DNA of 39,859 nt from a virus. The position numbers and the translations under genes are program-made. This document shows positions 1-39,859 of this stretch, piece by piece. Where the stretch lies: the IMG/VR virus record IMGVR_UViG_3300030101_003298, positions 1 through 39,859 of that record. One strand, written 5' to 3'. Each line of letters begins with the position of its first letter. Within the stretch, counting starts at the first letter, position 1. Under the pieces are notes generated by a model. That model was not told the DNA's origin and did no database searches. It was given only the letters and a program-made list of their open reading frames with translations.

Positions 1-99
1 CCCACGAGCGGCTTCCAGAGCTGAAGTTTGGTCCATCACCGTCACGTTGGTGGGACGTCCACCCATATGTGCTGCCATCAAACCGATAGCTCGTCGCAA
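1..99. repeat. Left copy of the 99-bp terminal overlap
   Basis: Bases 1-99 are identical to 39761-39859, the last 99 bases of the window. The overlap lies inside the coding sequence of the giant virion protein, and the reading frame is continuous across it. The simplest reading is that a circular or circularly permuted genome of 39,760 bp was assembled and one k-mer length remained at both ends. A true terminal redundancy is possible but would be an odd place for one. Confidence 0.97.
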
Positions 100-3084
100 G
101 TTGTCACGGACTTCGGTGCGTGGAGATGTAGCGGAGATGTAGGAAGCAAACAACTCGACCAGGTCTCGCTTGCCCTTCAAGAATGGGAACGCACGAATAA
201 GGTCGCTACCGAAAGCCTCGTACCAGAATCTCTGGGCCCACGTCCCACCAAGCGAGTCAGAGACAAATTCTGCGTTTGGGGTTCGCACTTTGCCGTCGTA
301 CTTCTGTACGTGATAGATCGGCTGGGGATCGGTGACTGAACTGTCACCAGGGTTTCGGTTGACGTAATCCTGGTACTGCTCTTCAGTCAAGACGCCGCGA
401 GCTGAAGGGTCAATGCCATCACGAGTGTTGCCAATTGCAAACTGGACCTCACCCTCCTCCAGACCTTCAGTCTTGACCAACGCTACACGACGAGCCACGT
501 CCTCTTCAACTTGGTCAATCGCGTCGTCGCCGTGCCGGAGACGAACCGCGTTCTTAGAGTCTTCCATGATCTGGTCCATCTCTTGCTGAGTGAGACGGAC
601 AGAGGTAGGGGGTTTGGATGCACGGAGCGAAGAGACAGACACCGGGTCAGCATCGCCGTATGTCGCGAAGTCTTTGCCAGACACCATCTGAACTGGCTCT
701 CCAGGTCGTAGCGGATACGCATCGCGCGATCCCTTACGGATACCTTCAGGCACTTGATTGCGAACGTCTGATTCTGTGACGTTTGACTTAGCTTTGCCGT
801 ACCCTTCAGGGCGGGCGAAGGACATCCCACTAAGTGTTCTTACTGCTTCGTCATCCTCTGCCCGAGGAGGAAGAACGCTTGGGTGTCCGTGAGGGGTTGC
901 GTACGGATCAGACCTGGCATGTGATTCTGCCGCTTGAGCAAACGCAAGTTGCGCCTGCTGAGACATTCCTCCAAGAGGTGTACCACTTGCAAGCTTTATA
1001 CCGTCAGCTGCGTCTGCGGTTGCCTCAAGAAGAGACAACAACTTGGTGGCGAACTGAGCCTGTGTACCCAGAACACCCATGGCAGCAAGTCGCTCAGACA
1101 CTGGTCCAGTAAGTTCCTGAGCGCCCTCTTCGATAGCCTGGGTCAAGCCTTCGGTAACGATGCCGGCTTGCTCTTGAGCGGTAAGTTCTGACACCTCGAG
1201 CACGCCAGCCAAAGCGGCGGTGATGCGCTGGTTTTGCTCGTTCCTTCGAGGGTCACCGGCATCCCGGTTGAAATACTCTCGAGCTCCACGCAGAGCATTT
1301 GTCTTGCCGGCCAGCTCTTCGATTTGCTGGTACAGCTCAGGGTTCGTGTGCTGGATCAGGTGCAACATCTCGTGCAAACCACGACCAAGATATTGCAACC
1401 TCTGAGCTGTTTTGTTTTTGAGCGGCGTGTTGTTGCGACGAATGAAGATTGTGCCAGGAGCATTTGGGTTGTAGAACGCAGGCGCAGCTCCTACCGCAGT
1501 ACCAAGACCGCCGTCGTAGAAGACAGCTCGCGAAGCCCCTAGACGTTGAAGACGTTCTTTGACCGACAACTCTTCTGGTGTCAAGGCGGCATCATCAACC
1601 AACGCAACTGGTTCTCGTGTGGCATCTGAATCTTCATCAGTTACCGGAGACTGCTTGTTGATGTCATCAATAACTTCTTCGGCGGTTTGGACTGTCAGGC
1701 CCAGTGCCTCCTGGGCAGTCTTGCCTTGATTCAAGCTCTCGTGGACGTCACCAGCTGCGTCAAGGATGGTCTTCTGAGTGTTAAGATCACGACCTAATTC
1801 TGTGATCTCATCTTGAATCATCTCAATTTCTGACACGGCTTCTCGACGTTCTGCCGGCGATGTCGATTCGTCATTAGCAACAGCTGCCAGTCCTTTTTGC
1901 TTTTCGACCAGGGCATCGAACTTGTCAAGCATGCCGGTGACCATCTCGCCTCGAGCATTTAGTTCTGCTTGACGTGCGTCTGCGTCTTTACCACTGAACG
2001 ACTCCAGGACAGCCGAGGTCTCACCAACAACGCTATCACGCAAGGCATCTTGCACAGCAGGTATCAACTTGCCAGCTTGATTGGTGTCTTGCGCTTTGCG
2101 AATAGCACCCTGTATAGATTGGGAGGGCACGCTTACAATGCCGCCCACAGCAGCACCCAGAACAAACGATTGAAGGACAGCCGTTGGATCTGCACGGTCA
2201 AAGTAGTCTTCTCGACCTGCAATCATGTCAAAGACCTGGGCGGTTGAAGCCTGACTAACTTCAGCAATAGCTTCTTCTGCACCCTCGGTCAACGATTCTT
2301 TGCCGTACCTACTAAGAAGTCCGGCGATGCCTCGAGACACCTGCTGCTGAGCTGGCTTACTTGCCTGTTTACCACCAGGGACTCGGTTGAGCAGAAGGCC
2401 GACCGTGACTTCGGTAGCCCCGGCAGAGAAGCCACGGATGTTCGCTTCTTTGGAGTCGAAGGGCAGGGGTGCTTTGCCTTCTTTGACTCGCTGCCTGTTG
2501 AAATCAATTTGTTCATTGATGGTCTGGTTGTACCCACCGTCGTAAGACCTGAGGTACATCTTGAGCAAACCAGCGCCACCACCAATGATGCCGCCAAGTA
2601 CAGCGCCACCAGGACCTGCGAAAGCACCGATGCGAGCACCAATTAGAGCTGGAGCAAGCCCTTCGGCCAGTACCTGACCCGTGGTAAAGCCAATCTGCTC
2701 ACCCATAGTCTCGCCTGCTTGACCAGCACGTTGTTGTTGGTAGGCGCGGAGACGGGCCATGTCTTCTTCTGACGAAAGACCAAGCTGTTCACCAAAGAAC
2801 TGTTGAACTTGTATGCCGGCATCTTCGGTCGCCTGACCAAGTCCACCAAGGAGGTTTGCACCAATGCCTTCGTAGGGATCAAGGCGGCCCTCACGCAGTT
2901 GGTTTTCATACGCGCGATACGCTTCGGGGCTGTCGAAGAGACGCGGCAGCAACATTTCAAGACCAGGTGCACCCTGAAGCATGCCTTGGCCCGAGCTCAA
3001 GCCGCCCCGCTGTCTACGGGGACGACTGCCCAAGCCTTGCGACTCAAGGAAGTCAGCTACAAAGTCAGCGTCGCTGGTGTACAT
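1..3084 (-). CDS. Giant internal virion / polyvalent protein, N-terminal part (residues 1-1028 of 3,540)
   Basis: This is the 5' part of a gene that runs off the left edge and continues at 39760 down to 32222. The ATG at 3084-3082 directly follows the TAA of the upstream gene, and no stop occurs in frame down to base 1. The protein starts MYTSDADFVADFLESQ. Visible parts in order: a Gly-rich hydrophobic stretch at about 148-180 (LIGARIGAFAGPGG...), a second at about 305-325, a polar helical part at about 360-480, then a zincin-like region with a beta-strand GTIFIRRN just before HEMLH at 571-575. SFARP follows at 755-759 and QFAIG at 881-885. A helical region with ATSPRTEVRDN begins near 975. 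Its position last in the late operon, after three internal-protein-like genes, suggests a T7 gp16-type ejected protein. The architecture is that of large polyvalent phage proteins. The fold assignments are inference. Confidence 0.88.
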   Translation of the reverse strand, partial: MYTSDADFVADFLESQGLGSRPRRQRGGLSSGQGMLQGAPGLEMLLPRLFDSPEAYRAYENQLREGRLDPYEGIGANLLGGLGQATEDAGIQVQQFFGEQLGLSSEEDMARLRAYQQQRAGQAGETMGEQIGFTTGQVLAEGLAPALIGARIGAFAGPGGAVLGGIIGGGAGLLKMYLRSYDGGYNQTINEQIDFNRQRVKEGKAPLPFDSKEANIRGFSAGATEVTVGLLLNRVPGGKQASKPAQQQVSRGIAGLLSRYGKESLTEGAEEAIAEVSQASTAQVFDMIAGREDYFDRADPTAVLQSFVLGAAVGGIVSVPSQSIQGAIRKAQDTNQAGKLIPAVQDALRDSVVGETSAVLESFSGKDADARQAELNARGEMVTGMLDKFDALVEKQKGLAAVANDESTSPAERREAVSEIEMIQDEITELGRDLNTQKTILDAAGDVHESLNQGKTAQEALGLTVQTAEEVIDDINKQSPVTDEDSDATREPVALVDDAALTPEELSVKERLQRLGASRAVFYDGGLGTAVGAAPAFYNPNAPGTIFIRRNNTPLKNKTAQRLQYLGRGLHEMLHLIQHTNPELYQQIEELAGKTNALRGAREYFNRDAGDPRRNEQNQRITAALAGVLEVSELTAQEQAGIVTEGLTQAIEEGAQELTGPVSERLAAMGVLGTQAQFATKLLSLLEATADAADGIKLASGTPLGGMSQQAQLAFAQAAESHARSDPYATPHGHPSVLPPRAEDDEAVRTLSGMSFARPEGYGKAKSNVTESDVRNQVPEGIRKGSRDAYPLRPGEPVQMVSGKDFATYGDADPVSVSSLRASKPPTSVRLTQQEMDQIMEDSKNAVRLRHGDDAIDQVEEDVARRVALVKTEGLEEGEVQFAIGNTRDGIDPSARGVLTEEQYQDYVNRNPGDSSVTDPQPIYHVQKYDGKVRTPNAEFVSDSLGGTWAQRFWYEAFGSDLIRAFPFLKGKRDLVELFASYISATSPRTEVRDNLRRAIGLMAAHMGGRPTNVTVMDQTSALEAARG

Positions 3085-19987: not shown

Positions 19988-21753
19988 CAGAATCCACCCC
20001 TGCCACGCGCACTTCGCTCTTGATTGCGCAATTCTTGCGAAGCATCTGCCGGCCCGGTCTGCATTCGGCTGCGTGCTGCGGACTGTTGGGACGCTGCCTG
20101 GGCCTCTTGCTCCTGCATCTGGGCTTGTTGGGCCTGTTGAGCCTGTTCCATGGCCTGTTTGAGCTCTTTGGCGTTCAAGATGTCGCCCATGTCTGGAATA
20201 TTGAGGGCATCTCCGACGATTGCCATCAATCGTTCCCAGTTGATGAACGGCATGGCGGCAACCTGCTGGCCAACATTGCCAACAATCTGCATAAGCTCGA
20301 CGGCACGTCGCTGTTGGAGAGCTTCGCTGGTGCGTTCCATGGAGTATGCCTGAACATCGAGAGTCATCTCGGCCAGGTCTACACCCATGTCTGAACCTTT
20401 GGCCTTTGGTGGCAGCTTGTACGCGGCAGCCTTGGGACCCAACGGCACTTCAGTGTCGTCGTTGATGATGTACCAAGCAGCCTTGTACATGAGACTGTTG
20501 ACTGCATCGGCAAACTGGCGTTGGATGTAACCCAAACGAAGGTTCGAGGAAGAGGATGCTGTGGAAACCTCAGTCGCAGTAGCATCACCAGTCACCGAAC
20601 CACGGATCACCTCTGACATACCGGTCAGTCGGTCGATTCGGGCAGCCATGATGTTCTGGTAAGCCATCTGCTGCTCGGTCACGCCACCGATTTCCAGTGG
20701 AATAACACGGTCACGATCCATGTTCTCTGCTGGCACAACGAACATGTCTGGCGTAGACGCCACATCCTGAGCCATCTTTGTGCCACGAGAGTCCACCAGG
20801 ACCAAACGTCGGTATGCCGCAGCAGAGTATGACATAGTCTTGGCGTGATCATTGGTCTCTTCGATGAGCGGTAGAGCCATCGTCATTGGGCCAAGAGGAT
20901 AAACGTCAGACGGCACGGAGTACGCTCCGAACACCGCGTATGGGCCACAGGCTGGTCCGTAGTACGGCTTTGGTTCTCCAGCAAGCTGACAAGAGCTTTC
21001 CGTATCTTCGATCAAACGAACCAGCCCACCGTGGTGCTCGCCTTCTTTCGCGCCTTCAACCTCAAGCTCCGGAATCCACATCTCGATGATGGTGACTTCG
21101 TTGCGATCAGGGACGCTGATTGAAGCGCGAGCGTACTCCTCGTTCTTCTTGTCGTAGCCTGCTTTCACATCACGAACGACCTCTAGGTCGAACGCTGAAT
21201 CGGACTCAGCCTGCACGAGCAGGTCATCCAAATCCATCTTGTACTCGTGACCGTAGTAACGAGCCTCTCTCGCCGTCTCCGCAGCAGGGTCGATAAAGAA
21301 CTTCTCAGGAGCAATTCGGTAGATCCGGGGCATGAGACCAGCGCCACCCATGTCGATCCGACGAAGGTGTTTGACTGGCTCGGGCGTAACTAGACCAACA
21401 CCCCATGTCATGCACATGTCTGTAGCGATTTGCTGCAACGTGGGGCGGGTGGCCGAACGCTTGCACCACTGGTTCATTGCCAGCTCGAGTGCCTGCGCTC
21501 GTTTGTTGTTTTCAGGGTCGTCCGCAGTCACATGAACGCGAGGGACGTCGTATGCCACCCGTGGAAGCACCAGGGACACATACTGGCCGATGATGTTCTC
21601 GATGTCGTATTCGTAGTCGTAGCTGGCATCAGACCGGTAGCCAAGACCAGCGAACCGCTCCTTCATCCCACGCCAGTGACGAAGGTGCTTCTCACGCCAT
21701 TCACGAGCGGAGTTGATTTCATCACGCAAGTTGTCGTTGTCAATCCGAAGCAC
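19987..21753 (-). CDS. Portal protein (588 aa)
   Basis: The ring protein through which DNA enters the head. Start set at GTG 21753 (VLRIDNDNLRDEINSAREW) with AGAGG six bases upstream; the frame is open to 21828 but the extension overlaps the small upstream gene. Supporting features: the N-terminal helical region WREKHLRHWRGMKERFAG, NIIGQYVSLVLPRVA, a beta domain including PRIYRIAPEKFFIDPAAE, the long-helix segment GMSEVIRGSVTGDATATEVS typical of podovirus portals, and a C-terminal Gln/Ala-rich tail (EQAQQAQQAQMQEQEAQAAS). It is placed between terminase and scaffold as expected. Confidence 0.88.
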   Translation of the reverse strand: MLRIDNDNLRDEINSAREWREKHLRHWRGMKERFAGLGYRSDASYDYEYDIENIIGQYVSLVLPRVAYDVPRVHVTADDPENNKRAQALELAMNQWCKRSATRPTLQQIATDMCMTWGVGLVTPEPVKHLRRIDMGGAGLMPRIYRIAPEKFFIDPAAETAREARYYGHEYKMDLDDLLVQAESDSAFDLEVVRDVKAGYDKKNEEYARASISVPDRNEVTIIEMWIPELEVEGAKEGEHHGGLVRLIEDTESSCQLAGEPKPYYGPACGPYAVFGAYSVPSDVYPLGPMTMALPLIEETNDHAKTMSYSAAAYRRLVLVDSRGTKMAQDVASTPDMFVVPAENMDRDRVIPLEIGGVTEQQMAYQNIMAARIDRLTGMSEVIRGSVTGDATATEVSTASSSSNLRLGYIQRQFADAVNSLMYKAAWYIINDDTEVPLGPKAAAYKLPPKAKGSDMGVDLAEMTLDVQAYSMERTSEALQQRRAVELMQIVGNVGQQVAAMPFINWERLMAIVGDALNIPDMGDILNAKELKQAMEQAQQAQQAQMQEQEAQAASQQSAARSRMQTGPADASQELRNQERSARGRGGF

Positions 21754-22045
21754 GTTTACCTCTTGGCTTTCGCGGTGTCGCCTTCTTTGGCGGGTCGTAT
21801 GGGACAGGCTCAACAGGAGCCATGTCATCTTCGATGTCCGAGCGGCTTAGCAACAGAGGTGGCTCACTGGCTATCTCCAGGTGGGTCAGCAGATCAGTCG
21901 TGTCATCATGCGGAACGACGATCAGTTTTCTCCCCAGCATTTCCGCACAATCCGGATGCAGATGAACAGCACAACCCTGAGCCGTCACTTCAACAGCAGC
22001 GATAGAGCTCAAGGGCAAGTAGATGTTCAGAATCCGAATTAGCAC
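21740..22045 (-). CDS. Small protein between terminase and portal (101 aa)
   Basis: An unrecognised 101-residue product starting at GTG 22045 (LIRILNIYLPLSSIAAVEVT). It has a strand-rich first half (GRKLIVVPHDD) and a Pro/Lys/Arg-rich tail (YDPPKKATPRKPRGKRASD). A six-codon frame (22039-22056) overlaps its start, which may deliver ribosomes by re-initiation, as no Shine-Dalgarno lies at normal distance. The end overlaps the portal start by 14 bases. A different start is possible. Confidence 0.6.
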   Translation of the reverse strand: MLIRILNIYLPLSSIAAVEVTAQGCAVHLHPDCAEMLGRKLIVVPHDDTTDLLTHLEIASEPPLLLSRSDIEDDMAPVEPVPYDPPKKATPRKPRGKRASD

Positions 22046-22123: not shown

Positions 22124-23878
22124 TTACTCATCGAGCACTATATCGTTATCCATGTTCAACATTGCTCGCCACGAGAAGTCGGGTTTGCCGTAATCGGTTA
22201 CGGCACGTTCGCTTTCCGGGTTCACTTCACCAAGAAGCATGACGCATCCACCGAAGGCGATCACACGGTCACCGTGGGCGTCACGGGCCCCTGAGCTGAC
22301 GTCGATCTCCAGCCTGGCCGGCCCGATGCCCCCGTCCTTGTAGATCACGGTGGATTCCATCTCATCCAGGATCTCAGCGTCGGCACAAATCACAGTGTCA
22401 TCGGCTATCGCACGGGCCAGGTCACCGAACAAAACCCGCTTTGTGACCCTTGTAGACGTCCATCCGACACGTTTTGAACGGGTCTCGACACGTTGTCCCA
22501 GCCGCCGGTGGTGGAATACGTTGTACCAACGCAGCCTCTCGAAGTCGTGCTGCATGGATGCACCAGGTCCGTTGACTTCCCAACCGATCAGCATGTCCGA
22601 CCGACCACGGGCCCAGCTTCGAGCAGCCCCGACCACCTCTCGAGCCAGGTCATACGGCGGGATCGCAGGGTCCACGAACGTCGCTACCACCTCACGTTGG
22701 TTGACATCCATCAACACGCAGCAGGCGTTTGCCGCCCCAGTTCCGTACGCCGGGTCCATGAACGCACACAGCACCGAGTGCTCGTCTGGCTCCTGAAAGA
22801 TCCGCCAACGTCCGGTTGGGTTATCCACAAGGTCTCCACGAACAGCCTCGCATCGGCGAGGTTTGCGGGTGTACTGACGCTGGCGTTCCAGGTCCACCAC
22901 GGGGAAGAAGCTTCGACCACGGCTGGACGGCAGGGCAAAGACGTTCTCACGAAGGTCATGGACGTCCCGTCGCTTCATCTGACGCTCAAGCCAAGGTGAC
23001 CACCAGTACCCGCGTCCGGGGTCCCCAGTGATCGAACCATCGACATCAACCCGAGCTTCACCCCCCGCCGACTTGTCGGGATCATCTACATAGGTCAATA
23101 GCAGGTCCTGAGGGTCGTGTGTGGCCTTTGCGGTCTCCCAGAGGGTCCCAGTGAAGTATGAGCCTACAAGGTGCGTAGAGACGGCCCAGCGGCTCGCAGC
23201 GGTATCTGCCGCAGAACGCCATCCTTCCTCGAATCTGTCCTGGGACGCGGCTTCGTCAAACAGGACCACCGTCTTTCGAGCACCCCGACCGATGTGGGAC
23301 GTCGTGGCTTCACCAGTGATCGCGTTCCCGTCAGGATGTTCAAGGATGCAGTGGCGTCTTCGCTTCCCACCCGGCAGCAGATCCGCCAAAGGACACGGCA
23401 ACCAGGACGGTGGGAGGTACTTGATGACGTGTTCGACCTTGGCAAACAGCGTATCGGGGTCACCAGTCCGGTCCACCAAGGCTTCAGTCCGAGAACACAG
23501 CAGTACATCCCAGCCTTTGAACAGCCAACCCCAGACTGACAGGGCTGTGCTTAGCACCGACACCCCGGTCTCCCGACTCTTAGCCACCGCCATGTCCCGA
23601 CCGCTCTCGACGCACCCGGACATCATCCGGATCATCTTGATCTGGGCCGGCCACGGGATGAACGGGACCAGCTTGTGCTCGGCAGGCCGTTCCTCACCAG
23701 TCTCATCGTCCACGATCTTGACCCGCCGAGACCAAACACCCAGCGTCACAAACGCCACGGGGTCCCCGGCGGCCAGTTCCGCCCACGCCGCCACGTCAGC
23801 AGGCCCCCACCCGAACTCTTCGGGCTCTTTTGCGCCAGCCAAGACCAGCCGGATGTTCTGGATATCAGTCTGATTCAC
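22124..23878 (-). CDS. terL: Terminase large subunit (584 aa)
   Basis: The DNA-packaging motor. Start set at GTG 23878 (VNQTDIQNIRLVLAGAK), which overlaps the small-subunit stop by 14 bases; the open frame upstream is a shadow. ATPase: Walker A-type AKSRETGVSV at 99-108 and Walker B TVVLFDEAA with D208-E209. RNase H-like nuclease: D375 in FMDPAYG, E434 in GWEVNGPG and D532/D536 in DAHGDRV. All catalytic positions are present and the length is normal. It cuts concatemers and pumps DNA through the portal encoded downstream. Confidence 0.93.
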   Translation of the reverse strand: MNQTDIQNIRLVLAGAKEPEEFGWGPADVAAWAELAAGDPVAFVTLGVWSRRVKIVDDETGEERPAEHKLVPFIPWPAQIKMIRMMSGCVESGRDMAVAKSRETGVSVLSTALSVWGWLFKGWDVLLCSRTEALVDRTGDPDTLFAKVEHVIKYLPPSWLPCPLADLLPGGKRRRHCILEHPDGNAITGEATTSHIGRGARKTVVLFDEAASQDRFEEGWRSAADTAASRWAVSTHLVGSYFTGTLWETAKATHDPQDLLLTYVDDPDKSAGGEARVDVDGSITGDPGRGYWWSPWLERQMKRRDVHDLRENVFALPSSRGRSFFPVVDLERQRQYTRKPRRCEAVRGDLVDNPTGRWRIFQEPDEHSVLCAFMDPAYGTGAANACCVLMDVNQREVVATFVDPAIPPYDLAREVVGAARSWARGRSDMLIGWEVNGPGASMQHDFERLRWYNVFHHRRLGQRVETRSKRVGWTSTRVTKRVLFGDLARAIADDTVICADAEILDEMESTVIYKDGGIGPARLEIDVSSGARDAHGDRVIAFGGCVMLLGEVNPESERAVTDYGKPDFSWRAMLNMDNDIVLDE

Positions 23879-24521
23879 TCGGAAGTTCTTTCTGGTCGAA
23901 GTCCAACTTACCAGCCCACGCCTGGGCCGCAGCCCTAACAGCATCCGAACCTGCACCAATACCCATAATCGGACCCCCGTTGGGACCCGACAGCTCAACC
24001 CGCTCAATCCGAGGCAACCGGGCTCGCAGCCAAACCTCAGCCGCACGGATCTTGTTCCGCTCGTCCTCGGCAGACAAAGCCAAGCCCCGAAGCATGTCCA
24101 TCATCGCCTGATCGCCCTGACCCTCGGCTTCAGCCTCCTCCTCACGGAAGCCCTCCTGCCGGATTCGCCAGCTTCGCATGGTGTCGTAGTTCAGATCAAT
24201 CATTCGACAAGCTTCGGCGGCAGACCAGCCCTGCCTGCGGGCCTCCAGGTACGGGATCCGCTTGGTCTCCCATTGCCTTAGCTGTTTTGTTGGTGTGCTG
24301 TCCGAGTCCCCTCTCTTGCGGGAACCCTGTGCATGGCTTGCCTGCGGCTGACCTGCAAGCCTACCCCCCCCATCGCTGGCGGCTGGCTGGCCAGAGCCCT
24401 GCTCGCTGGCTGGCGGGGGGGCTGGCTCAGCCTGCTCCTCGTGCGCGTGTTGGCTGTGGTGCTGGTGGTGGCTGGCTGCGGGCTGCGGGTGGGGCTGGTG
24501 GTCTATCCGTGCTCGAGGCAT
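23865..24521 (-). CDS. terS: Terminase small subunit with His-rich N-terminal extension (218 aa)
   Basis: Start set at ATG 24521 because GAGGAG lies eight bases upstream; the frame is open to 24878, but that part covers the divergent promoter and the opposite early gene. Residues 1-75 are low-complexity with nine His among Gln, Pro and Ala (HHQHHSQHAH). A helix-turn-helix follows at about 92-120 (RRQGWSAAEACRMIDLNYDT and MRSWRIRQ), the DNA-recognition part, then an acidic coiled-coil oligomerisation segment. The C-terminus likely contacts the large subunit. It is the first gene of the late operon. Confidence 0.8.
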   Translation of the reverse strand: MPRARIDHQPHPQPAASHHQHHSQHAHEEQAEPAPPPASEQGSGQPAASDGGGRLAGQPQASHAQGSRKRGDSDSTPTKQLRQWETKRIPYLEARRQGWSAAEACRMIDLNYDTMRSWRIRQEGFREEEAEAEGQGDQAMMDMLRGLALSAEDERNKIRAAEVWLRARLPRIERVELSGPNGGPIMGIGAGSDAVRAAAQAWAGKLDFDQKELPSESD

Positions 24522-24720: not shown

Positions 24721-25341
24721 ATGAAACTTTTCAACGTACAACTGACTTCTGACAACATCGACTGGGCCCAGTTTGATCTGGGCGCACGCTTGGCGGACTC
24801 ATGCAACTGCTGCCCTTGGCGAGGCCGAATGACCTTCATCAAGGAATCCGAACTCGAGCGAATCCGCCAAAGCCCCAAGCAACTCTACGGTCGAGAGACC
24901 GCCGAGATCGTGAAGCGTTGGGCTCACACACCCGAGGATGGTTACGACGTGCTCGAGCATGATGGCGAGCGGTACATCCAGATCACTTCGGTTGGGGCTC
25001 AAGCCCTGCTCGAGATCAGCCCTGAGCCCTCCCACGCCCACCCGGACGAGGAGTTCTACCCTGAGCGGACCCTGAGCGTGTACTGGTTCTGCTGCGATCC
25101 TGAGACTAATGCTGATGACTGGGCGGGCGAGCCCTACGGCGGGTTCGACTCGCACTGGATCAACAAGTACGCCAAGCCTGTACGGGTCAATCGCTTCACG
25201 ATCCTGAAGGCCATGAACGATCTGTTCGCCTCGCACACCAAGTCGGACCCCGTGTACCGGATCTGCACTGAGCGTTGCGACGGCGATGACTGGGACTGCG
25301 TGTTCCAAGTGCTCGAGCACGGGACTGTCATCTACGGCTGA
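24721..25341 (+). CDS. Unrecognised early protein (206 aa)
   Basis: First gene of the early operon, with GGAG ten bases before the ATG. The product is soluble and acidic. It has clustered Cys (DSCNCCPWRG near 28; YWFCCDPE near 123; CTERCDGDDWDC near 181) that could bind zinc, though the spacing matches no ribbon I know. Long charged helices include IKESELERIRQSPKQLYG. The gene uses CTCGAG for Leu-Glu repeatedly. It ends at a UUCG-capped hairpin. First-expressed phage genes often redirect host functions, but nothing in the sequence shows which. Confidence 0.8.
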   Translation: MKLFNVQLTSDNIDWAQFDLGARLADSCNCCPWRGRMTFIKESELERIRQSPKQLYGRETAEIVKRWAHTPEDGYDVLEHDGERYIQITSVGAQALLEISPEPSHAHPDEEFYPERTLSVYWFCCDPETNADDWAGEPYGGFDSHWINKYAKPVRVNRFTILKAMNDLFASHTKSDPVYRICTERCDGDDWDCVFQVLEHGTVIYG

Positions 25342-25357
25342 TCACGACCCCCCACCT

Positions 25358-25377
25358 GTCCCCTCTTCGGAGGGGGC
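25358..25377 (+). terminator. UUCG-tetraloop hairpin, copy 1
   Basis: After the stop of the 206-aa gene, GTCCCCTC-TTCG-GAGGGGGC forms an eight-pair stem (one U.G) closed by C(UUCG)G, the most stable RNA tetraloop. No U-run follows, so it is more likely a processing/stability element or a leaky terminator than a classical one. The 20 bases before it are identical to those before copy 2. Confidence 0.6.
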
Positions 25378-25382
25378 GGACT

Positions 25383-25396
25383 GGGCGGCCCTGCCC
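25383..25396 (+). promoter_or_regulatory. Leader inverted repeat GGGC-N6-GCCC, copy 2
   Basis: GGGCGGCCCTGCCC precedes AAGGAGAACTACC-ATG of the 148-aa gene. There is no promoter between this copy and the previous gene, which argues for action on the message rather than on promoter DNA. Confidence 0.55.
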
Positions 25397-25410: not shown

Positions 25411-25857
25411 ATGACCAACCCTGAATTGATTTCATTCTACGACGCACACAGCCGGCTGAAAGTCCGTGCCAAGCGTGATGGCGAACTGCTCGTCGAGATC
25501 CAGTACCGTAAGAAATCCACCTTCAACGGCGGCACTCGGTACTTGGTACAAGTCGGATTCCACGACATCAAGCCGACCCTGAGTCAAGTCGGCCATGAGG
25601 CCGGGTTTGATCACCGGGGCGTCCGAATCAAGACCGACCGTGCTGGCGTTGAGAAGGTGCTCGAGGAGTGCCTTCGCAAAGGCCACATCAGCCAGACCAC
25701 GATGACCCTGATGCTCGCTGCCATCGACGATCAGATGCTTAGATCCTCGGGCAGTACCGGGCTGGATGCTGGTGCTGGCTGGGTGAAGATGATCGACGGC
25801 GAGCCCAAGTGGGGATACATGGACATGGATGCGGGCCTCTCGTTCATCGACGACTGA
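25411..25857 (+). CDS. Unrecognised early protein (148 aa)
   Basis: Strong ribosome site (AAGGAGAACTACC-ATG). The product has a basic first half (HSRLKVRAKRDGELLVEIQY, RKKSTFNGGTRYLVQVGF), helices in the middle (GVEKVLEECLRKGHI) and a Gly/Asp-rich end (WGYMDMDAGLSFIDD). No family is recognised. It is bounded on both sides by the same leader and hairpin elements as its neighbours, which suggests the gene-plus-control unit was duplicated or assembled from like parts, although the proteins do not look alike. Confidence 0.8.
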   Translation: MTNPELISFYDAHSRLKVRAKRDGELLVEIQYRKKSTFNGGTRYLVQVGFHDIKPTLSQVGHEAGFDHRGVRIKTDRAGVEKVLEECLRKGHISQTTMTLMLAAIDDQMLRSSGSTGLDAGAGWVKMIDGEPKWGYMDMDAGLSFIDD

Positions 25858-25873
25858 TCACGACCCCCCACCT

Positions 25874-25893
25874 GCTCCCTCTTCGGAGGGGGC
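25874..25893 (+). terminator. UUCG-tetraloop hairpin, copy 2
   Basis: GCTCCCTC-TTCG-GAGGGGGC again gives eight pairs with one U.G. Compared with copy 1 the bases TC are swapped to CT opposite GG, so pairing is kept in both. No U-run follows. Confidence 0.6.
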
Positions 25894-25929
25894 GGGATGA
25901 GGAGCCCTGATTATTTCCAAGTATTATGC

Positions 25930-28996: not shown

Positions 28997-29033
28997 CTCC
29001 CCCCGGAGGAGGAACTTCGCTGCTTCCTTCGGG

Positions 29034-29052
29034 CTTTGCCTTCGGGCGACAA
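29034..29052 (+). repeat. 19-bp direct repeat, copy 1, with GCC-TTCG-GGC mini-hairpin
   Basis: CTTTGCCTTCGGGCGACAA is repeated exactly at 29096-29114. Each copy contains a UUCG-capped three-pair stem. The copies flank the hairpin at 29068-29091. Confidence 0.85.
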
Positions 29053-29067
29053 CCCCCCCTTCTGCCG

Positions 29068-29091
29068 GAGGCTGCATCCACCCGCAGCCTC
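29068..29091 (+). other. Eight-pair hairpin between the direct repeats
   Basis: GAGGCTGC and GCAGCCTC are perfect complements separated by an eight-base loop. The non-coding stretch 28965-29136 is otherwise pyrimidine- and G-rich with no credible small gene. It may be a regulatory RNA, a terminator/attenuator, or an origin element. Confidence 0.6.
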
Positions 29092-29095
29092 TGGC

Positions 29096-29114
29096 CTTTG
29101 CCTTCGGGCGACAA
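29096..29114 (+). repeat. 19-bp direct repeat, copy 2
   Basis: Exact second copy of 29034-29052, 62 bases downstream, ending 22 bases before the exonuclease ATG. Confidence 0.85.
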
Positions 29115-31825: not shown

Positions 31826-32235
31826 TCTTCAGAGTGCATGGACGCCCAGTGCCCATGCCCAGACCAAGGGTGTACGGGGGCAGGGCGGTTTCGATTGCGA
31901 ACCCCAAAGCTCGAGCATGGAAGGGGGCGGTGTTGGCGGCTGCAAAAGAGGCGGCTGCGGCGTGTGGATGGACACCGTCTCACCGCCCCCTCCGGCTCGA
32001 GTTGACCTTCGTCTACGCCAGGCCGAAGAAGCACCTTGACAAAGACGGAATGGTCAAAGACAAGTACCACGATGCCCACGTCGTCGCTCGACCTGACATT
32101 GACAACCTGGCCAAACTGGTGATGGACGCCATGAACGACGTCGTCTACGTTGACGATTGCCAGATTGTTTACCTGTCGGCAACCAAGCAGTACGCCGCAG
32201 AAGACTCACTGCACGCCAAGATTACCGAGCTTTAG
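31822..32235 (+). CDS. rusA: RusA-family Holliday junction resolvase (137 aa)
   Basis: Residues from FRVHGRPVPMPRPRV onward match RusA. The catalytic block ARPDIDNLAKLVMDAMND then VVYVDDCQIV holds D92, D94, N95, K98, D102 and D111/D112, which correspond to the acidic metal site of E. coli RusA. The start is uncertain: a TTG at 31822 overlaps the previous stop and gives a normal 137-residue length; no in-frame ATG precedes the conserved start except within the previous gene. The stop overlaps the 3' end of the giant gene on the other strand by 14 bases. Confidence 0.88.
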   Translation: MIFRVHGRPVPMPRPRVYGGRAVSIANPKARAWKGAVLAAAKEAAAACGWTPSHRPLRLELTFVYARPKKHLDKDGMVKDKYHDAHVVARPDIDNLAKLVMDAMNDVVYVDDCQIVYLSATKQYAAEDSLHAKITEL

Positions 32236-35200
32236 CAGCTTCACGCTCTTCGCGATTACGCTTGCCCTCGTCGCGAGCCCACTTGAATACTTCCTTCTGC
32301 TCCCTGGTGAACTCAACGCCGAACTTTTCTCGCAGTTGGAATTCAGCAGATCGGATCTCCGCTGGGCTTGCACCAGTAAACAGAATTTCCAGCAGCTCAA
32401 ACGGAGCTCGAGCGGGGACACCAAGCAACGTCAAGAAGTCAACCGACGCACGCTCCAAGGCTTCTGCCTTGCGGTCTGGGTCTGCTGTCTGATAGGTCAA
32501 CTGTGTTTGACGCAGGGTGCTGATTGCCACACCAAGGCCCACGTTCTGAACAGAGGATTCCAGGTAACGGCCTTCGTCCCTGGAGTCGCGGTTCTCGCGG
32601 AAGGCGTGGATCTCTTCAGCGATCATTGCCCCAAGCGGTCGTGACAGCAAGAACGTGGCAACTGGGAACGGAGAAGCACGAACCAGGGTCTCTTCAATGA
32701 ACATGTCCAAGGCTCGGTCTGTTGACTTCTGCCGGTGCAGCTCGGCCAGGATCTTCTCCTTCTCATCCTCGTCGTCGTACAACGCTGCCTTCAGCATGCT
32801 CCAGAGATACGTCACCCCAACGTTGACCGCAGCATTGCCGGCAATTGAGACGGCTGCCACCCGTCCCCTTGTGCCTTTGTCTGCACCAGGCTCGTACAAC
32901 CTGGAGTAGGTCTTCATCGGGTCAGATGTAAAGGTCAAGAAAGCTTGGCCAAGACCACCGTTGGTGCGGAGGTTGGCCGTGACGTTGGAGTCATCGAGCG
33001 GCGACGAGGTGTTCTGTGTGCGACGTATAGATTGTTCAGCAGCCTTGATCGAATCGGAGGATGGAGCGTCAGTTTCGTTGCGACGATTCATCTCAATCTG
33101 AACAGCCGTGGCGACAATGAATCTGTCCAGAAGACGCAAGGTTGGGATCGCCTTGCTAATCGAACCGATTGATTTGACCGTCTGGGCCAGGTGTTCACGG
33201 GACAGGGACAGGTTGCCTTCACGAGCAGCCTTGCCTGACAGTGTGATATTGGTGATGACATCATTCATCACGTCCAGGAACTGAACCATATCAGCCATGC
33301 CTGCGGCTCCATCGTCACGGTTGAAGACGACACGCCTATCGACCGCGTTGCTGGAGTCACGATCCCAGAGATACCCCGACCGTTGAGCCACTTCCTTCTG
33401 GAAGAAGTCGTTGAACCCTCCAGCCGCCAGACGCTTGAACATCTGACCCGTGGCCTGAAGCAACTCTCCAGGTGCAGCCGTGATCTGCAAAGCATTGAGA
33501 CCACCGAAGAAGATGCGGCCCCAACTGGTTGGGCTCAACACCAAGATGCCACCAGTCACAGGTGCGAGCGCACCCAAGGCTGGGTCGGACCTGGCCGGCA
33601 ACACTCGAGTGGCATACCCGACGTGCTTTAAGATCCTGTCGTACTGCTCACTGCCCAGCTTGGTGGTGACCTCCCGACGAACATCTGGGTCAGTCAAGAC
33701 GGTCCAAAGCACCCGAGTTGGCTCAGCCATATGGGTCAGCTCCAAAGAACTGTCCAGGTGGTCGAGGTAGTCACTGGCAAAGTCAGAGACCACAGGCACA
33801 GTGTTGCGAGCACGCTGCTTGGTAAACCCTGCGTTCTCCGCAAAGATTTCCATGACGTTGTCGCTCTTCAGGATCTGATCCAAAGCTGCTTGGGCTGTCA
33901 TACGCTCCGCCGAACGGGGCTCGTACCCTTCGACTTGGGGAGGCATACGCCCGGTCAACTTGTAGAGCATTGCCATGGCTGGCCCACGAAGCTGCGACTC
34001 TCGGATCTCTTTAAGGTCAGTTACTAATCTCTTGGTGGGACCGTCAGCTATCTCGCGAACAGCAAGGATGTCACCACGAAGGTCTGCACCTTCGATCATC
34101 TGTCCTTCGCCAGCACGACCCACACGCAATGAGACCATGCCCCTGCGGTCGATGATGTCGAGCGTCTCGTTGTCCATGGCGAGGAGCTTGAGATACTGGC
34201 CCAGCGTGATATCCACTTCTTTGCCGCCAAGTTTGACCTTGCGGGTGGACACCATCGCACGACCTCGAGTCATGCTGGTCTGGGCGCGGAAGTCGGCGAG
34301 GTCTCGGAAGCCGGCACGACGTACCGCTTCGTCAGTCCTTGACATCACGCTGCGTCTATGGCTCAGCATGCGTGACTCGGCGTCGGTCAACGCTTCCCAC
34401 ATGAAGTCCAAACCAAGAAGCTTCAGCACGGACTCGAGATCCAGGCCACCTCTTTGAGCCATCCCAAACCGACTGCTTTGCGTGACGCCACCAGGGCCGA
34501 CCGGGGCTTCTGATTCACGAGTAGCCACAGCAGCTTTCGCCGCTTCAGTTCCTCGGTCCACATCTTCCCTGAACTCCGCACGGTTCTGCTTTTGTATGTC
34601 GCGATCGTCCTGGATGGCCAAGTCCAACTCAGTGTGCAGCTCTTCGAGCTCGTACAATGCCTGCTCGTACTGGTCAAGCTCGGCTGCGGTTGGCTTTTCT
34701 TTGAACAACTTGAGCAAGCCTTCCGCCTTGGCGGTCACAGCTTTGAGCTTCTGCCTAGTCTCGTCAGACATCTTAACGCCTGCACGAAGCAAAGACTTAG
34801 CCCGTTTGTTGAATGAGACTGTGGCTTCTTGCATCCGCCCCTGGGCAGCGATGTTCAAGACCTCTCGCTCAACTTTCAACAAAGCTGCTTCTGTCTTGGC
34901 TTGAGTCAGCTTGGTCAGGAGCTTTCCTCGAAGACGAACGGGCAGGTTCTTCTGGATGAACTTGCGTGTATCTTGCCGAGCCTCCTCAAGCTGGACTCTA
35001 TCCGCCTTGAGGTCCGCTTGACGCTGCCGCATCTTTCGCATTTGCTCGTCGAGTGCAGCCTTCTTGTCTTGCCGGCTCAGTTCCTTTTGGGCATCAACAC
35101 CTGCGGTGATACCGGACAGAGCAGCGATGTCAGGACGCATACCCTTCTTGCCAACAAGCCTTTGCTTCTCTCGATCCATGATGGTCTGAAGCACCGTGTC

Positions 35201-38200
35201 CAATCTGGACCCAAGACGATCTCGAGCCTGCTTCTCTCTGCGTTGACGCTCCCTGTCAACTCCTCGCATCTGAGGCTCTCGAGCATATGAGATTTCGTTG
35301 GTCGGGCCCAGATCAGTAACGCCAAGAATCCTGACGGTTGGCTTGCGATACGCAGGCATAGTGGGGTCAAGAATCGCATCAACCACATCGCCAGGCAACT
35401 GGTCATAGACGAACTGCCGGAACTCGTCTCTGCTGTTACGCCTCTGGAACTCTTGCCGTGCCTCTTCCTCGTTCCTTGCCGTGATGGTCACGCGGCCACG
35501 GTGCGAGGCATACGCGCCCCTGTCTCCACGGATGCTCGCGTTGTATGAGAACATGAAGTCCCTCTTCTTGGGACCACCGTATTCCCGTGCAAAGACGATT
35601 GGTGGAATGGTCTTGTCTGGGGTAGGAGTTCCTTCCGTCACAGCATTCAGCTGCATCTCTTTCTGTCGAGACTCCATGAGGTCTATCGAAGTCGAAGGAG
35701 CATTCTCCATGATGTGAGCTAGGCTGCCCAACGCCAGCTCGAGAACGGTCCTCTCCCTGCCCCTGTTATCGACCAGGGCTCTGTTGTCGATACCCATGGA
35801 CTGTGCAACAAACTCCAGCAGCTTTGCGAACGCGACGTTGCCCTTGTCAACCATCGCGATATCTTCGGGCCTCATGACTTGCACTTGAATGAAGTGATCG
35901 TTGCCGTTGCTTTGATCACCAAGCATTGGTGCAATCGGGCTCAAGCTCTTGCCCTGGTTTGCAGCATCAGCCGTGTCGATGATCTGCATCTGCGCCAACA
36001 TTTGCTGAAGGTGTTTGTTGTTTATGCACTGTGCCATGAACTCGTACAAATCGCCGGTAACGTACCCAGCTTGGACAAGGTCCATCATCAAATACTTTGT
36101 AGCGCTACGCTGTTCAGCCTCATCTCTTGAGACTGATTCTGCCATGTCCGGGTCCATCCGCATGGCCGCCTCTGGGTCTGCGACCAAGTGGGCGACAGCC
36201 ACATATGCAATACACAGATTTCTCATCCAAGGTCGCTGCTTCTCCAGCGGTGCTGAGAGATAGCTCATCGCCCTTTCGAGATCCACATGGCCTTGGGTTG
36301 TTGGTATTTGCTGACGAACCTGCTGAACCCCGGCTGCCTGGGAACCTAACTTGGCGCTTGGGTGTGCATGCGCACGAATAATCAGGTTAGCAAAGCCACC
36401 GTCTTGCGGATATGTAGTCTCCGACCCAAAGGCGTACATGCCCTGATCAATCCTTAGGGCGTCTTTGCCCACACCAGAATCAAGGATTTCAGTGGTTCCA
36501 AGCACACGCTGAAGCTCGTCTTGGATTACAAGGACCGACCGAGCATGTGTATACTCGTGAATAATCACGTCCAACCAATTGTGAACATCAATGCCGGCAA
36601 CAGAGTTCGCCCCGACAGCGCCTCTCTCTGTAAGCGGCTTTGGCTTTTCAAAGTTCTCCGCCAAATCCGGCGGTCCAAACACAATTGCGCCCCTCTTAGC
36701 AAACCCTTCTGGGTCTGCTTTCGCGGCTGGGTGATTCTCGAAGAATGTTTGTCCCCGCTCTGTAATCGCTCCCGCTGGAGCGGAAGGGTCCAAGCCTGAT
36801 CGTGAGAATCTCGCAGGAGGATGGTAGAACCCACTGCCATAATATTCCTTCACCTCAAAAGGAATGTCCAGGTCAATACCTTGATTCAAGATTTGACGTA
36901 CAACGTCTTGTGACGCTTTTATCTTCGGCTCCATGTGCTCAAGAATTGCGTCTTGAGCATCTGCAATGTTGTGGTAGACCACCAACGCCCGAGACTGCAA
37001 GTCCTCGTCTTCAATCTCAAATAATTTTTCTTCGAGTCTTTTGAGTCTGGCCTTCATTGAACTTCGTGGGTCCACCGTCAGCATGAGCTTCAACGCATCA
37101 CCTATTGTTTCCAGTCCATCAAGTCCAGGAACAACATCACTTGGGTGCAGGATCAGACGATCAACCGTTCTCTCCAGGTGATCCTTGGGGTCTCGAAGTA
37201 CGCCCGTAAGCCTAGTCTCTTTACTGCCATCGTCCACCAATCCTCTGAGGTCAAACTCAGTGATCTTCGCAAGCTCGTAAGCAGCGGCCCGGAGTTGGTC
37301 GTTGTCCAGGTTGTAGTGATCGTCTATGCCAAGAAGGCAAGCGCCGAGCTTTTGCCCGGTCCTGTCTCTGTGTGCGTACGCAATCTCTTTTTTCGCTTTC
37401 GCAGGGATGCGATCATCAACCAGAGAGCCACGATCTCGTTCGGATCTGGTGTCTACTCTTGCGTAGGAATAGATGGAGGAGTTGTCGCTTCGCTCTCTGG
37501 CAAAGCTGATTGCTCCATTGGATCGCTTGGAGATTGACCCGGCGACTTTGTCATTGGCCTCTTGTTGTTCTCGGAGGAAGTCGGCACGATGCGCTCTAAG
37601 GGATGACCGAAAGTGATGAAGGCGGAATGCTTGACTTCGTCCAACAGACTCGATAACTCTTGCTCTGTCATCTGGGTCGAGCTGAGCAACCCGTTCCCAT
37701 ACTGCCCTGGTTGCAGAGCGACCTTTGCGACCAGACGACCCTTGGGTGGCGGTGACTGAGGGCGCGATGAGGGCGAGCTTGTCTTCTCTTGTGGGGGCGA
37801 CTTGCTCGATGAGCTCTCGTTGCTTTTTGTTGAGGGCTCTTGTCCGCTTTGGTCTTCGTTGGTTTCCATCTAGTTCTCCTTTTGCTGCTCTTTCCTCGGT
37901 TCTCTTGAGGGCCCGATCAGTCCGTGTCTGTTCAATTGCTGCCGCGTCTCCAGACTCGACGGCGGCGTCGTAAGCCTGCTCGGCTTTGCGACGTGCCTTC
38001 CGCTTCTTGTCCAGAGCGGATTGAAGCTTTTCTTGTCTTTTGAGGAACGCTTCCTCAGATTCAAATACCTCCTGCCCACCCTCTCCGATGGGGATACCAT
38101 CATACCAAGTTCCGTTATCTATTTCTTTCTCGGCAGCCTCGAGAATGATTTCGTTCTCACGCTTTGTGATATCGGACTGTGTTGGGCCGATCTGACCCTC

Positions 38201-39859
38201 AGGGTAACCGGCGTCTTCCCACTTGGAACCGAACGGCAGGGAGTACCCACCATCAAGAGCAACTTGGGTTGGGCCGGCAATCTTGATGCCGTCGCCAAAC
38301 TCTGCCAAGCACGCGCCTTCAATCTGCTGCACTGACTTGGGATCGACTTGCCCAACCTCAAAGTCTGCGAAGGTGATGATGGTTCCGTTGGATACCTGCT
38401 GCACCAGGGGGTTCACATCTTTGTTGTCGATCTGCTTCAACACGTTGGCGATCTGCGTGTTGTTTACGTTCACACCAGGAATGAACACCAAGACTGGGCC
38501 GATCGACTCGGTGTCACCAGGCTCTCTTCGCTTCACGACGTGGGATGCAGCCGCTTCTTGAGCCAGTCCCAGCGAGATCATTCTGACTGCATCAGTCATT
38601 TCTTCGGCTGACAGTCCGGGGACAACCACGTTCACGACGTTGTTGACGATCATGTCGCCATCGGTGTCTGGGTATGCACCAAGCGGACCAGTGATAACAG
38701 CGCCACCATCCGGGCCCTGTCCAACATTGACGTTGCTAGGCGAGGTAGTTCGGAGATCAACGCGGAACTTTGCCACCTGGCCAAGAGCAGTGGTCTTGCC
38801 CAGTGGCCGGTTCAGGTCAGCGCCTGCTCCGTTCTCCACCAGCGTTTCGTTCGACATCAGTTTGACCTTGATCTCGTAGGTCTTTTTGCCGTGACGAATT
38901 GTGATGGTTTTGCCGTACAGCTTGCTTCGCTTGCCTTTGTTGATCGTGCCTCGCATCACCCCCATGCCGGCAGGATCAATGAGCACATCCAGCATGACGT
39001 CAGCGTCTGGAATCTCCATTGCCATGTCCAGCAGATTGCGAACACCAATGTCACGACGCTTGGCGGACAGTGTGTTCAGGAAGGCGTTGTTTGGTTTGAA
39101 CAACTCAGCCAAACGGTTCTGGAAATACGCTCTCTCTGACTCGGTGAGGTCAGGGTTGACCGACTCAGCCAACAAGTATTTGCCCATATGATTGGCACGA
39201 CGACCTTGCTTTGTAGCCTCGGTTGCGACTTCAACAGTTGCACGAGGACCGCCTCGATGCTCAGACGCGGGCTCAATGATCGTGTCCAAAGACTCTTCGG
39301 TGAATTGGTCTTCAGACATGCTGATCTGGTCACCATCTTTAGTTGCTTGACCAGCCTCGTACGCCTGCTCCAGAAACTCATCAAGAGACTCGGAGAATGT
39401 TCCTGTGTCGTCCAAGCGGTTGGACCACATAGCCGCCTGAAGTTGCCACGGTCGGAATGGCTCAACCATCATGGCTTCTTGTGGAGTCAGCTCCTGGCCC
39501 TGTGCCATCTTTGCCTTGGCGTCCTTGTACTCTTGAGTTTGCTGAGTCTTGGCGTTGATTGCGTCAGCAACACGACCCATGAACTCAGCCCCAAGTTCGT
39601 ACATCAGAGGGTTGGCAAACGCCTCCTGGGGAATACCAAAGAACCGAGCCATGATGACGTCCAACGTCGCCATTGGAACTTCAGTGGCTGTACCCATTCC
39701 CAGACCCAAGGTTTGGTTGAAAGACCCCACCTTGTACTGTCCTGGATTACGGCCATACCCCCCACGAGCGGCTTCCAGAGCTGAAGTTTGGTCCATCACC
39801 GTCACGTTGGTGGGACGTCCACCCATATGTGCTGCCATCAAACCGATAGCTCGTCGCAA
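32222..39859 (-). CDS. Giant internal virion / polyvalent protein, C-terminal part (residues 996-3,540)
   Basis: This continues the gene that starts at 3084 and passes the circle junction; the TTG at the window edge is an internal Leu codon, not a start. Parts in order: helical region to about 1060 (TLDVIMARFFG); a mixed beta region at about 1250-1550; a Lys/Arg/Glu coiled coil at about 1600-1680; SFARE at 1780 and SYARV at 1793; RFSRSGLDPSA at 2012-2022; a second zincin motif HEYTH at 2096-2100 (VIIHEYTHARSVL); VFARE at 2417; SYARE at 2519; a long coiled coil at about 2530-2790. A C-terminal helical domain from about 2800 has hydrophobic helices near 3050-3080 and 3325-3350. The C-terminal part, including FLTFTSDPMKTYSRLYEPG, resembles the ends of large polyvalent phage proteins. 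I find no RNA polymerase motifs. At 3,540 residues it takes over a quarter of the genome. Confidence 0.88.
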   Translation of the reverse strand: MRRAIGLMAAHMGGRPTNVTVMDQTSALEAARGGYGRNPGQYKVGSFNQTLGLGMGTATEVPMATLDVIMARFFGIPQEAFANPLMYELGAEFMGRVADAINAKTQQTQEYKDAKAKMAQGQELTPQEAMMVEPFRPWQLQAAMWSNRLDDTGTFSESLDEFLEQAYEAGQATKDGDQISMSEDQFTEESLDTIIEPASEHRGGPRATVEVATEATKQGRRANHMGKYLLAESVNPDLTESERAYFQNRLAELFKPNNAFLNTLSAKRRDIGVRNLLDMAMEIPDADVMLDVLIDPAGMGVMRGTINKGKRSKLYGKTITIRHGKKTYEIKVKLMSNETLVENGAGADLNRPLGKTTALGQVAKFRVDLRTTSPSNVNVGQGPDGGAVITGPLGAYPDTDGDMIVNNVVNVVVPGLSAEEMTDAVRMISLGLAQEAAASHVVKRREPGDTESIGPVLVFIPGVNVNNTQIANVLKQIDNKDVNPLVQQVSNGTIITFADFEVGQVDPKSVQQIEGACLAEFGDGIKIAGPTQVALDGGYSLPFGSKWEDAGYPEGQIGPTQSDITKRENEIILEAAEKEIDNGTWYDGIPIGEGGQEVFESEEAFLKRQEKLQSALDKKRKARRKAEQAYDAAVESGDAAAIEQTRTDRALKRTEERAAKGELDGNQRRPKRTRALNKKQRELIEQVAPTREDKLALIAPSVTATQGSSGRKGRSATRAVWERVAQLDPDDRARVIESVGRSQAFRLHHFRSSLRAHRADFLREQQEANDKVAGSISKRSNGAISFARERSDNSSIYSYARVDTRSERDRGSLVDDRIPAKAKKEIAYAHRDRTGQKLGACLLGIDDHYNLDNDQLRAAAYELAKITEFDLRGLVDDGSKETRLTGVLRDPKDHLERTVDRLILHPSDVVPGLDGLETIGDALKLMLTVDPRSSMKARLKRLEEKLFEIEDEDLQSRALVVYHNIADAQDAILEHMEPKIKASQDVVRQILNQGIDLDIPFEVKEYYGSGFYHPPARFSRSGLDPSAPAGAITERGQTFFENHPAAKADPEGFAKRGAIVFGPPDLAENFEKPKPLTERGAVGANSVAGIDVHNWLDVIIHEYTHARSVLVIQDELQRVLGTTEILDSGVGKDALRIDQGMYAFGSETTYPQDGGFANLIIRAHAHPSAKLGSQAAGVQQVRQQIPTTQGHVDLERAMSYLSAPLEKQRPWMRNLCIAYVAVAHLVADPEAAMRMDPDMAESVSRDEAEQRSATKYLMMDLVQAGYVTGDLYEFMAQCINNKHLQQMLAQMQIIDTADAANQGKSLSPIAPMLGDQSNGNDHFIQVQVMRPEDIAMVDKGNVAFAKLLEFVAQSMGIDNRALVDNRGRERTVLELALGSLAHIMENAPSTSIDLMESRQKEMQLNAVTEGTPTPDKTIPPIVFAREYGGPKKRDFMFSYNASIRGDRGAYASHRGRVTITARNEEEARQEFQRRNSRDEFRQFVYDQLPGDVVDAILDPTMPAYRKPTVRILGVTDLGPTNEISYAREPQMRGVDRERQRREKQARDRLGSRLDTVLQTIMDREKQRLVGKKGMRPDIAALSGITAGVDAQKELSRQDKKAALDEQMRKMRQRQADLKADRVQLEEARQDTRKFIQKNLPVRLRGKLLTKLTQAKTEAALLKVEREVLNIAAQGRMQEATVSFNKRAKSLLRAGVKMSDETRQKLKAVTAKAEGLLKLFKEKPTAAELDQYEQALYELEELHTELDLAIQDDRDIQKQNRAEFREDVDRGTEAAKAAVATRESEAPVGPGGVTQSSRFGMAQRGGLDLESVLKLLGLDFMWEALTDAESRMLSHRRSVMSRTDEAVRRAGFRDLADFRAQTSMTRGRAMVSTRKVKLGGKEVDITLGQYLKLLAMDNETLDIIDRRGMVSLRVGRAGEGQMIEGADLRGDILAVREIADGPTKRLVTDLKEIRESQLRGPAMAMLYKLTGRMPPQVEGYEPRSAERMTAQAALDQILKSDNVMEIFAENAGFTKQRARNTVPVVSDFASDYLDHLDSSLELTHMAEPTRVLWTVLTDPDVRREVTTKLGSEQYDRILKHVGYATRVLPARSDPALGALAPVTGGILVLSPTSWGRIFFGGLNALQITAAPGELLQATGQMFKRLAAGGFNDFFQKEVAQRSGYLWDRDSSNAVDRRVVFNRDDGAAGMADMVQFLDVMNDVITNITLSGKAAREGNLSLSREHLAQTVKSIGSISKAIPTLRLLDRFIVATAVQIEMNRRNETDAPSSDSIKAAEQSIRRTQNTSSPLDDSNVTANLRTNGGLGQAFLTFTSDPMKTYSRLYEPGADKGTRGRVAAVSIAGNAAVNVGVTYLWSMLKAALYDDEDEKEKILAELHRQKSTDRALDMFIEETLVRASPFPVATFLLSRPLGAMIAEEIHAFRENRDSRDEGRYLESSVQNVGLGVAISTLRQTQLTYQTADPDRKAEALERASVDFLTLLGVPARAPFELLEILFTGASPAEIRSAEFQLREKFGVEFTREQKEVFKWARDEGKRNREEREAAKAR
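39761..39859. repeat. Right copy of the 99-bp terminal overlap
   Basis: Exact copy of bases 1-99. These bases should be counted once when the genome is circularised at 39,760 bp. Confidence 0.97.

What the first reader, a model, noticed from the sequence alone, without database searches (positions are those of the whole stretch)
35279..37507. Recurring [SV]-[FY]-A-R motif in the giant protein, possible processing or linker signal
GMSFARPEG (about 753), AISFARERS (1778), IYSYARVDT (1791), PIVFAREYG (2415) and EISYAREPQ (2517) share I/M/Y-[SV]-[FY]-A-R, with weaker relatives VQFAIGNTRDGIDPSA (880) and RFSRSGLDPSA (2012). They occur between regions that look like separate domains, and two copies bracket the coiled coil and follow the zincins. 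A regularly placed short motif in a polyprotein with two candidate proteases suggests cleavage or docking sites.
Basis: partly seen in the sequence, partly recalled or inferred. Interest (0 to 1): 0.7.

Follow-up and report, generated by a model that had tools for sequence, protein, structure and literature searches.

The report
Border motif in giant phage protein
A three-letter amino-acid tag, Phe/Tyr-Ala-Arg, recurs at the borders between the parts of a giant protein of an uncultured phage, and a sister tag, Phe-Ser-Arg, marks shuffling borders in many other giant phage proteins, so it is a real punctuation mark whose purpose (a cutting site, a handle, or just a hinge) is still unknown.

Summary
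The five copies are real. They sit in a 3540-aa protein that runs across the ends of a circular 39.8-kb podovirus genome. [SV][FY]AR occurs 5 times against 0.2 expected. The only relative found (IMG/VR) keeps all five [FY]AR triplets although flanks are only 47% identical. It also has a sixth copy where a ~300-aa domain is inserted, so the extra domain is bracketed by two copies. In low-confidence AlphaFold models every copy lies in coil; two copies bracket a small folded domain, not the coiled coil.

The pattern extends to other phage polyvalent proteins. Among 46 non-redundant giants (Pseudomonas F116/H66 type), [FY]SR[SAGT] occurs 66 times against 12 expected. FSR ranks first of 3082 tripeptides in association with breaks in homology (76% of sites against 12.5%), and the enrichment persists when the motif is masked. 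H66 is 99% identical to F116 from exactly this motif onward.

So 'regularly placed border motif' is supported. 'Cleavage by the protein's own zincins' is not: motif density does not track HExxH presence, and 12 of 29 distinct junctions lack [FY][SA]R. The 880 'relative' is not a copy. No description was found in the papers searched. Function is untested; processing is my leading guess, docking and passive hinge the rivals.

The parts
1..3084 (-). giant protein, residues 1-1028 (first part; continues across the contig ends)
   Evidence: open frame; joins 39760-32222 through the 99-bp terminal repeat
32222..39760 (-). giant protein, residues 1029-3540 and stop
1267..1617 (-). predicted zincin-like domain 1 (aa 490-606), HEMLH at aa 571-575 = 1360-1374
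   Evidence: AlphaFold2 model, blocks at pLDDT 51-83 for aa 490-589: helix, three strands, HExxH helix, second helix; HExxH conserved in relative
802..828 (-). motif copy 1, GMSFARPEG (aa 753-761)
   Evidence: relative has IAFAREQ here, and a second copy IAFARSR on the far side of an inserted ~300-aa domain; coil in model, pLDDT about 25
400..447 (-). VQFAIGNTRDGIDPSA (aa 880-895): NOT a motif copy
   Evidence: identical in the relative inside a conserved block; no FAR/FSR
37487..37513 (-). motif copy 2, AISFARERS (aa 1778-1786)
   Evidence: conserved as IAFARKR; coil in model
37448..37474 (-). motif copy 3, IYSYARVDT (aa 1791-1799)
   Evidence: conserved as YAYARVDT; coil in model
36779..36811 (-). 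RFSRSGLDPSA (aa 2012-2022): FSR-form match just before zincin 2, not conserved in the relative
36545..36559 (-). HEYTH of predicted zincin 2 (aa 2096-2100)
   Evidence: HELTH in relative; fold not resolved by the model (low pLDDT)
35576..35602 (-). motif copy 4, PIVFAREYG (aa 2415-2423)
   Evidence: conserved as LVYARD with 6/24 flank identity
35303..35563 (-). small alpha/beta domain (aa 2428-2514) bracketed by copies 4 and 5
   Evidence: AlphaFold2 pLDDT about 54-76 for local residues 709-790; no significant PDB match
35270..35296 (-). motif copy 5, EISYAREPQ (aa 2517-2525), followed by the coiled coil
   Evidence: conserved as SAFARDPG; last strand ends 2514, long helix starts about 2524

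Best explanation
Shown by sequence: h-x-[FY]-[SA]-R is a selected short linear motif that marks borders between exchangeable modules of giant, multidomain phage proteins. The window's protein is one, using the Ala form. Inferred: the protein is carried in the virion and ejected like T7 gp16, N4 vRNAP or P1 DarB, because its gene ends the structural operon. Inferred, most likely function: the motif is a recognition or cutting site at which the chain is divided into its domains, during head maturation or after injection, by a protease whose identity is open (own zincin in trans or in cis, another phage protease, or a host protease).
For: Five copies against 0.2 expected. All five are conserved in the relative while flanks diverge, and the relative's inserted domain is bracketed by two copies. 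Copies lie in modelled coil and two bracket a folded domain. In F116, ART-PolyVal (542-674) ends 9 residues before FSR (683); in USP18 it lies between FSR 3021 and 3236. H66 and F116 resume 99% identity exactly at the F of FSR although the upstream module differs: LPD3 in H66, ART in F116. In 46 giants, [FY]SR[SAGT] 66 against 11.9; homology-block ends 12.5 per site against 1.0; with the motif masked, 76% of non-junction sites lie near a break against 27%; FSR first of 3082 tripeptides. L082 has FAR at the homologous junction where relatives have FSR. Zincin processing of polyvalent proteins is an existing prediction (PMC5512222).
Against: No cut has been observed. Motif density does not depend on HExxH. 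12 of 29 distinct junctions lack [FY][SA]R. DarB-type giants (JC1, SopranoGao and others) show little or no excess. N4 vRNAP has an HExxH and is reported as packaged unprocessed. Copy 1 has Pro after Arg, which would hinder a trypsin-like cut. [FY]AR itself is only weakly tied to breaks in the F116/H66 set, so equating the Ala and Ser forms rests mainly on L082 and on the shared bracketing.
Confidence: 0.42

Rival explanations
1. Docking or threading handle: the motif in the linkers binds a virion partner (portal, internal core protein, capsid inner face) or starts domain-by-domain unfolding and translocation; nothing is cut.
For: Border position and multiple copies; motif present without HExxH; N4 vRNAP is ejected as loosely connected domains; P1 DarB uses a short packaging signal, though N-terminal.
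Against: No partner identified; the motif is kept in phages with different structural proteins, and some giants lack it.
Confidence: 0.25
2. Passive hinge or shuffling scar: the triplet is a tail that travels with common modules (for example the 'PDIRFSR' end of ART-PolyVal cassettes) and marks where recombination is tolerated, without its own function.
For: Strong link to homology breaks; many ART-type modules end in GNxGxFDxxxPDIRFSR.
Against: Codons of the copies differ, so it is not a DNA crossover sequence; the motif is kept where the ART module is absent (H66, 8P) and in the window pair, where flanks diverge.
Confidence: 0.27
3. Chance: a post hoc pattern in a 3540-residue protein.
For: [FY]AR alone is only 3-fold over expectation; pattern chosen after inspection.
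Against: Conservation of all five in the relative plus a sixth at an inserted domain; independent border association in 46 giants.
Confidence: 0.05

Closest known systems
Phage polyvalent proteins (Iyer et al. 2017, PMC5512222)
   Same: very large multidomain phage protein, HExxH zincin-like domains between other domains, modules gained and lost between relatives
   Different: no Pfam, NCBIfam or PHROGs polyvalent domain detected in the window protein; the paper predicts zincin processing, and my term searches of its main text found no mention of this border motif
Hollowayvirus F116/H66 giant protein (LPD23, LPD3, ART-PolyVal, PLxRFG tail-700)
   Same: two zincin HExxH sites, [FY]SR at module borders, end of the structural operon; H66 gp60 is annotated as a mass-spectrometry-verified virion protein
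   Different: Ser instead of Ala in the motif; no significant homology of the compared C-terminal regions to the window protein
N4 virion RNA polymerase gp50
   Same: giant (3500 aa) ejected protein with an HExxH
   Different: no clear motif excess (3 [FY][SA]R, 1.5 expected) and reported as packaged intact
P1 DarB, DdrB, DarA
   Same: virion-carried large proteins; DarA cut by Pro, DdrB has HExxH
   Different: no [FY]SR punctuation in DarB or DdrB

Membership tests
Phage polyvalent protein | giant multidomain polypeptide with modules exchanged between relatives | tested here: met
   3540 aa; ~300-aa domain present in the relative and absent in the window
Phage polyvalent protein | zincin-like MPTase domain (three strands flanked by helices, HExxH helix, second helix) | tested here: met
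   zincin 1 modelled with that order; profile match to F116 zincin weak (E 0.0012, probability 19%); zincin 2 shown only by HExxH and context
Phage polyvalent protein | catalogued LPD, ART-PolyVal or MPTase-PolyVal Pfam domain | tested here: not met
   no Pfam hit to these domains in window or relative; so called polyvalent-like, not a member of a named domain family
Phage polyvalent protein | packaged in the virion and ejected | not testable with these tools
   inferred from gene order only
Self-cleaving polyprotein | conserved short motif at domain borders | tested here: met
Self-cleaving polyprotein | motif depends on presence of the encoded protease | tested here: not met
   no association with HExxH in 46 giants, p 0.38
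Self-cleaving polyprotein | mature fragments with termini at the motif | not testable with these tools
   no proteomic data found
PLxRFG / tail-700 (NF032893) | match to the NCBIfam model | tested here: not met
   H66 and USP18 match strongly; window protein does not

The most novel reading that the evidence does not exclude
h-x-[FY]-[SA]-R is a general punctuation code of giant ejected phage proteins, read by one conserved partner or protease, so that module swaps stay functional because each module keeps the tag at its border.
Probability: 0.3. Interest if true: 0.8.

Novelty: new variant of a known kind. Interest (0 to 1): 0.58.

Why it matters
How giant polyvalent phage proteins are packed, threaded through a narrow tail and turned into working parts is open, and zincin processing has been a prediction without a site. 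A defined motif at module borders turns this into a direct experiment in cultured laboratory phages of the F116/H66 group. It also gives a sequence rule for splitting such proteins into domains for annotation, structure prediction and expression.

Tried and rejected
Pfam, NCBIfam and PHROGs on the giant: nothing useful. tblastn of the giant and of the relative's inserted domain against 50,697 phage records: none. Four viral-contig scans with window queries gave one relative; one window query against genome contigs gave none. Foldseek of both models against PDB: nothing significant. Counting tripeptides after masking every homologous residue: the mask removes exactly the border sites, uninformative. 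Crude disorder scale around motifs: no clear signal. Idea that all copies in one protein share the same flavour (Ser or Ala): not supported (p 0.75). Motif in DarB-type giants: weak or absent. P1 DdrB and N4 vRNAP as yardsticks: not informative or negative. Published fragment data for F116/H66/Bcep22-type virions: not found in the library.

Full report
What is there. The window is a 39,859-bp virus record with a 99-bp direct terminal repeat (1-99 = 39761-39859), so the genome is circular or permuted. One minus-strand frame runs 3084->1 and continues 39760->32222: 3540 residues. The record is podovirus-like: large terminase 22124-24046 and a head-tail adaptor/portal 19987-21828, major head protein 17352-18743 and head decoration 16848-17324, Mtd_N-type fibre 8382-10061. 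The giant gene comes last in the structural operon, as in JC1, SopranoGao and H66. No capsid maturation protease was recognised.

The motif. [SV][FY]AR occurs five times (0.2 expected); [FY]AR five times (1.6 expected). The only relative in the searched collections, IMGVR_UViG_3300030099_004882, aligns over the whole protein. All five copies are kept: MSFARPE/IAFAREQ, ISFARER/IAFARKR, YSYARVD/YAYARVD, IVFAREY/LVYARDN, ISYAREP/SAFARDP. Flanks within 12 residues are 47% identical overall and 25% at copy 4, while A and R are identical in all five. Codons differ between copies, so selection is on the peptide.

Domain insertion. The relative has about 300 extra residues where the window has the short stretch before GMSFARPEG, and a sixth copy (HIAFARSRG) at the other side: motif-domain-motif against a single motif.

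Structure. With only two sequences, AlphaFold2 models are poor overall (mean pLDDT 39.6 and 35.9), so absence of structure is weak evidence. Two parts are credible: zincin 1 (aa about 490-589, blocks at pLDDT 51-83, HExxH in a helix after three strands) and a small alpha/beta domain (aa 2428-2514, pLDDT about 54-76). The latter is bracketed by copies 4 and 5, with the aromatic residue of the motif 6 to 10 residues outside its end strands. No copy falls in a modelled core.

Beyond the window. F116p60 (Pseudomonas phage F116) has two HExxH sites, ART-PolyVal at 542-674 and FSR at 521 and 683. USP18 has ART-PolyVal at 3043-3227 between FSR 3021 and 3236. H66 and 8P show no ART; H66 has LPD3 in that slot. 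Both keep one border FSR, and H66 is 98.97% identical to F116 over 967 residues starting at the F of FSR. A viral-contig scan with the following domain gave 79 loci; in a reduced set of 46, [FY]SR[SAGT] is 5.6-fold over shuffles, whereas S[FY]R is not enriched. Homology-block ends cluster at these sites: 12.5 per site against 1.0 at random positions, 6.0 against 1.1 with the shared junction excluded. Masking the motif and its scrambles before BLAST leaves the effect: 76% of 33 non-junction sites within 15 residues of a break, random 27%. An unbiased ranking of 3082 tripeptides puts FSR first (50 of 66 near a break, base rate 12.5%). These p-values treat related sites as independent and so are optimistic; the fold differences are the safer figures. 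Members used in that ranking share the tail domain, which also explains SWW and WWH on the list.

Linking Ala and Ser forms. L082 has MFARSK at the junction where relatives have MFSRSK. In that family [FY]AR overall is only weakly tied to breaks; many FAR there look like parts of conserved domains. So the equivalence is probable, not proven.

Function. The one test possible here does not favour it: motif density is equal in giants with and without HExxH (HExxxH variants and truncated loci blur this). Loss of [FY][SA]R at 12 of 29 distinct junctions shows it is not indispensable, though some of these have near variants (FRR, YSH, HSR). Docking or threading and a passive hinge remain open. I commit to processing as the most likely single function, at under even odds.

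Status. The border association is a tool result; conservation and bracketing are direct from sequence; virion location and any function are inference. I found no description of the motif in the papers I could search, a library that excludes most subscription journals and preprints.

Noticed in passing
1-99 and 39761-39859: 99-bp direct terminal repeat inside the giant gene; the contig is circular or permuted.
   Followed up: yes
L003 about 8402-9244: The relative's inserted domain holds RGHEARHRSS, a GHExRHR-like motif; no phage match by tblastn.
   Followed up: partly
25328-25393 and 25844-25909: 66-nt repeat at 86% identity with a CCCTC-TTCG-GAGGG hairpin, possibly paired terminators.
   Followed up: no
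29003-29052 and 29065-29114: Two 50-nt imperfect direct repeats 62 nt apart.
   Followed up: no
14936-15706: Metallophosphoesterase-like protein (phrog_221) within the structural operon.
   Followed up: no
L028 3688-15049: The giant gene is one frame in H66 but annotated as two (p59, p60) in F116; sequencing error or real split not checked.
   Followed up: no
L035 and L036, about residues 3240 and 2387 of the giants: Tandem DDIRYSQSNDGMKFSR: two variant tags in a row before the conserved domain.
   Followed up: no
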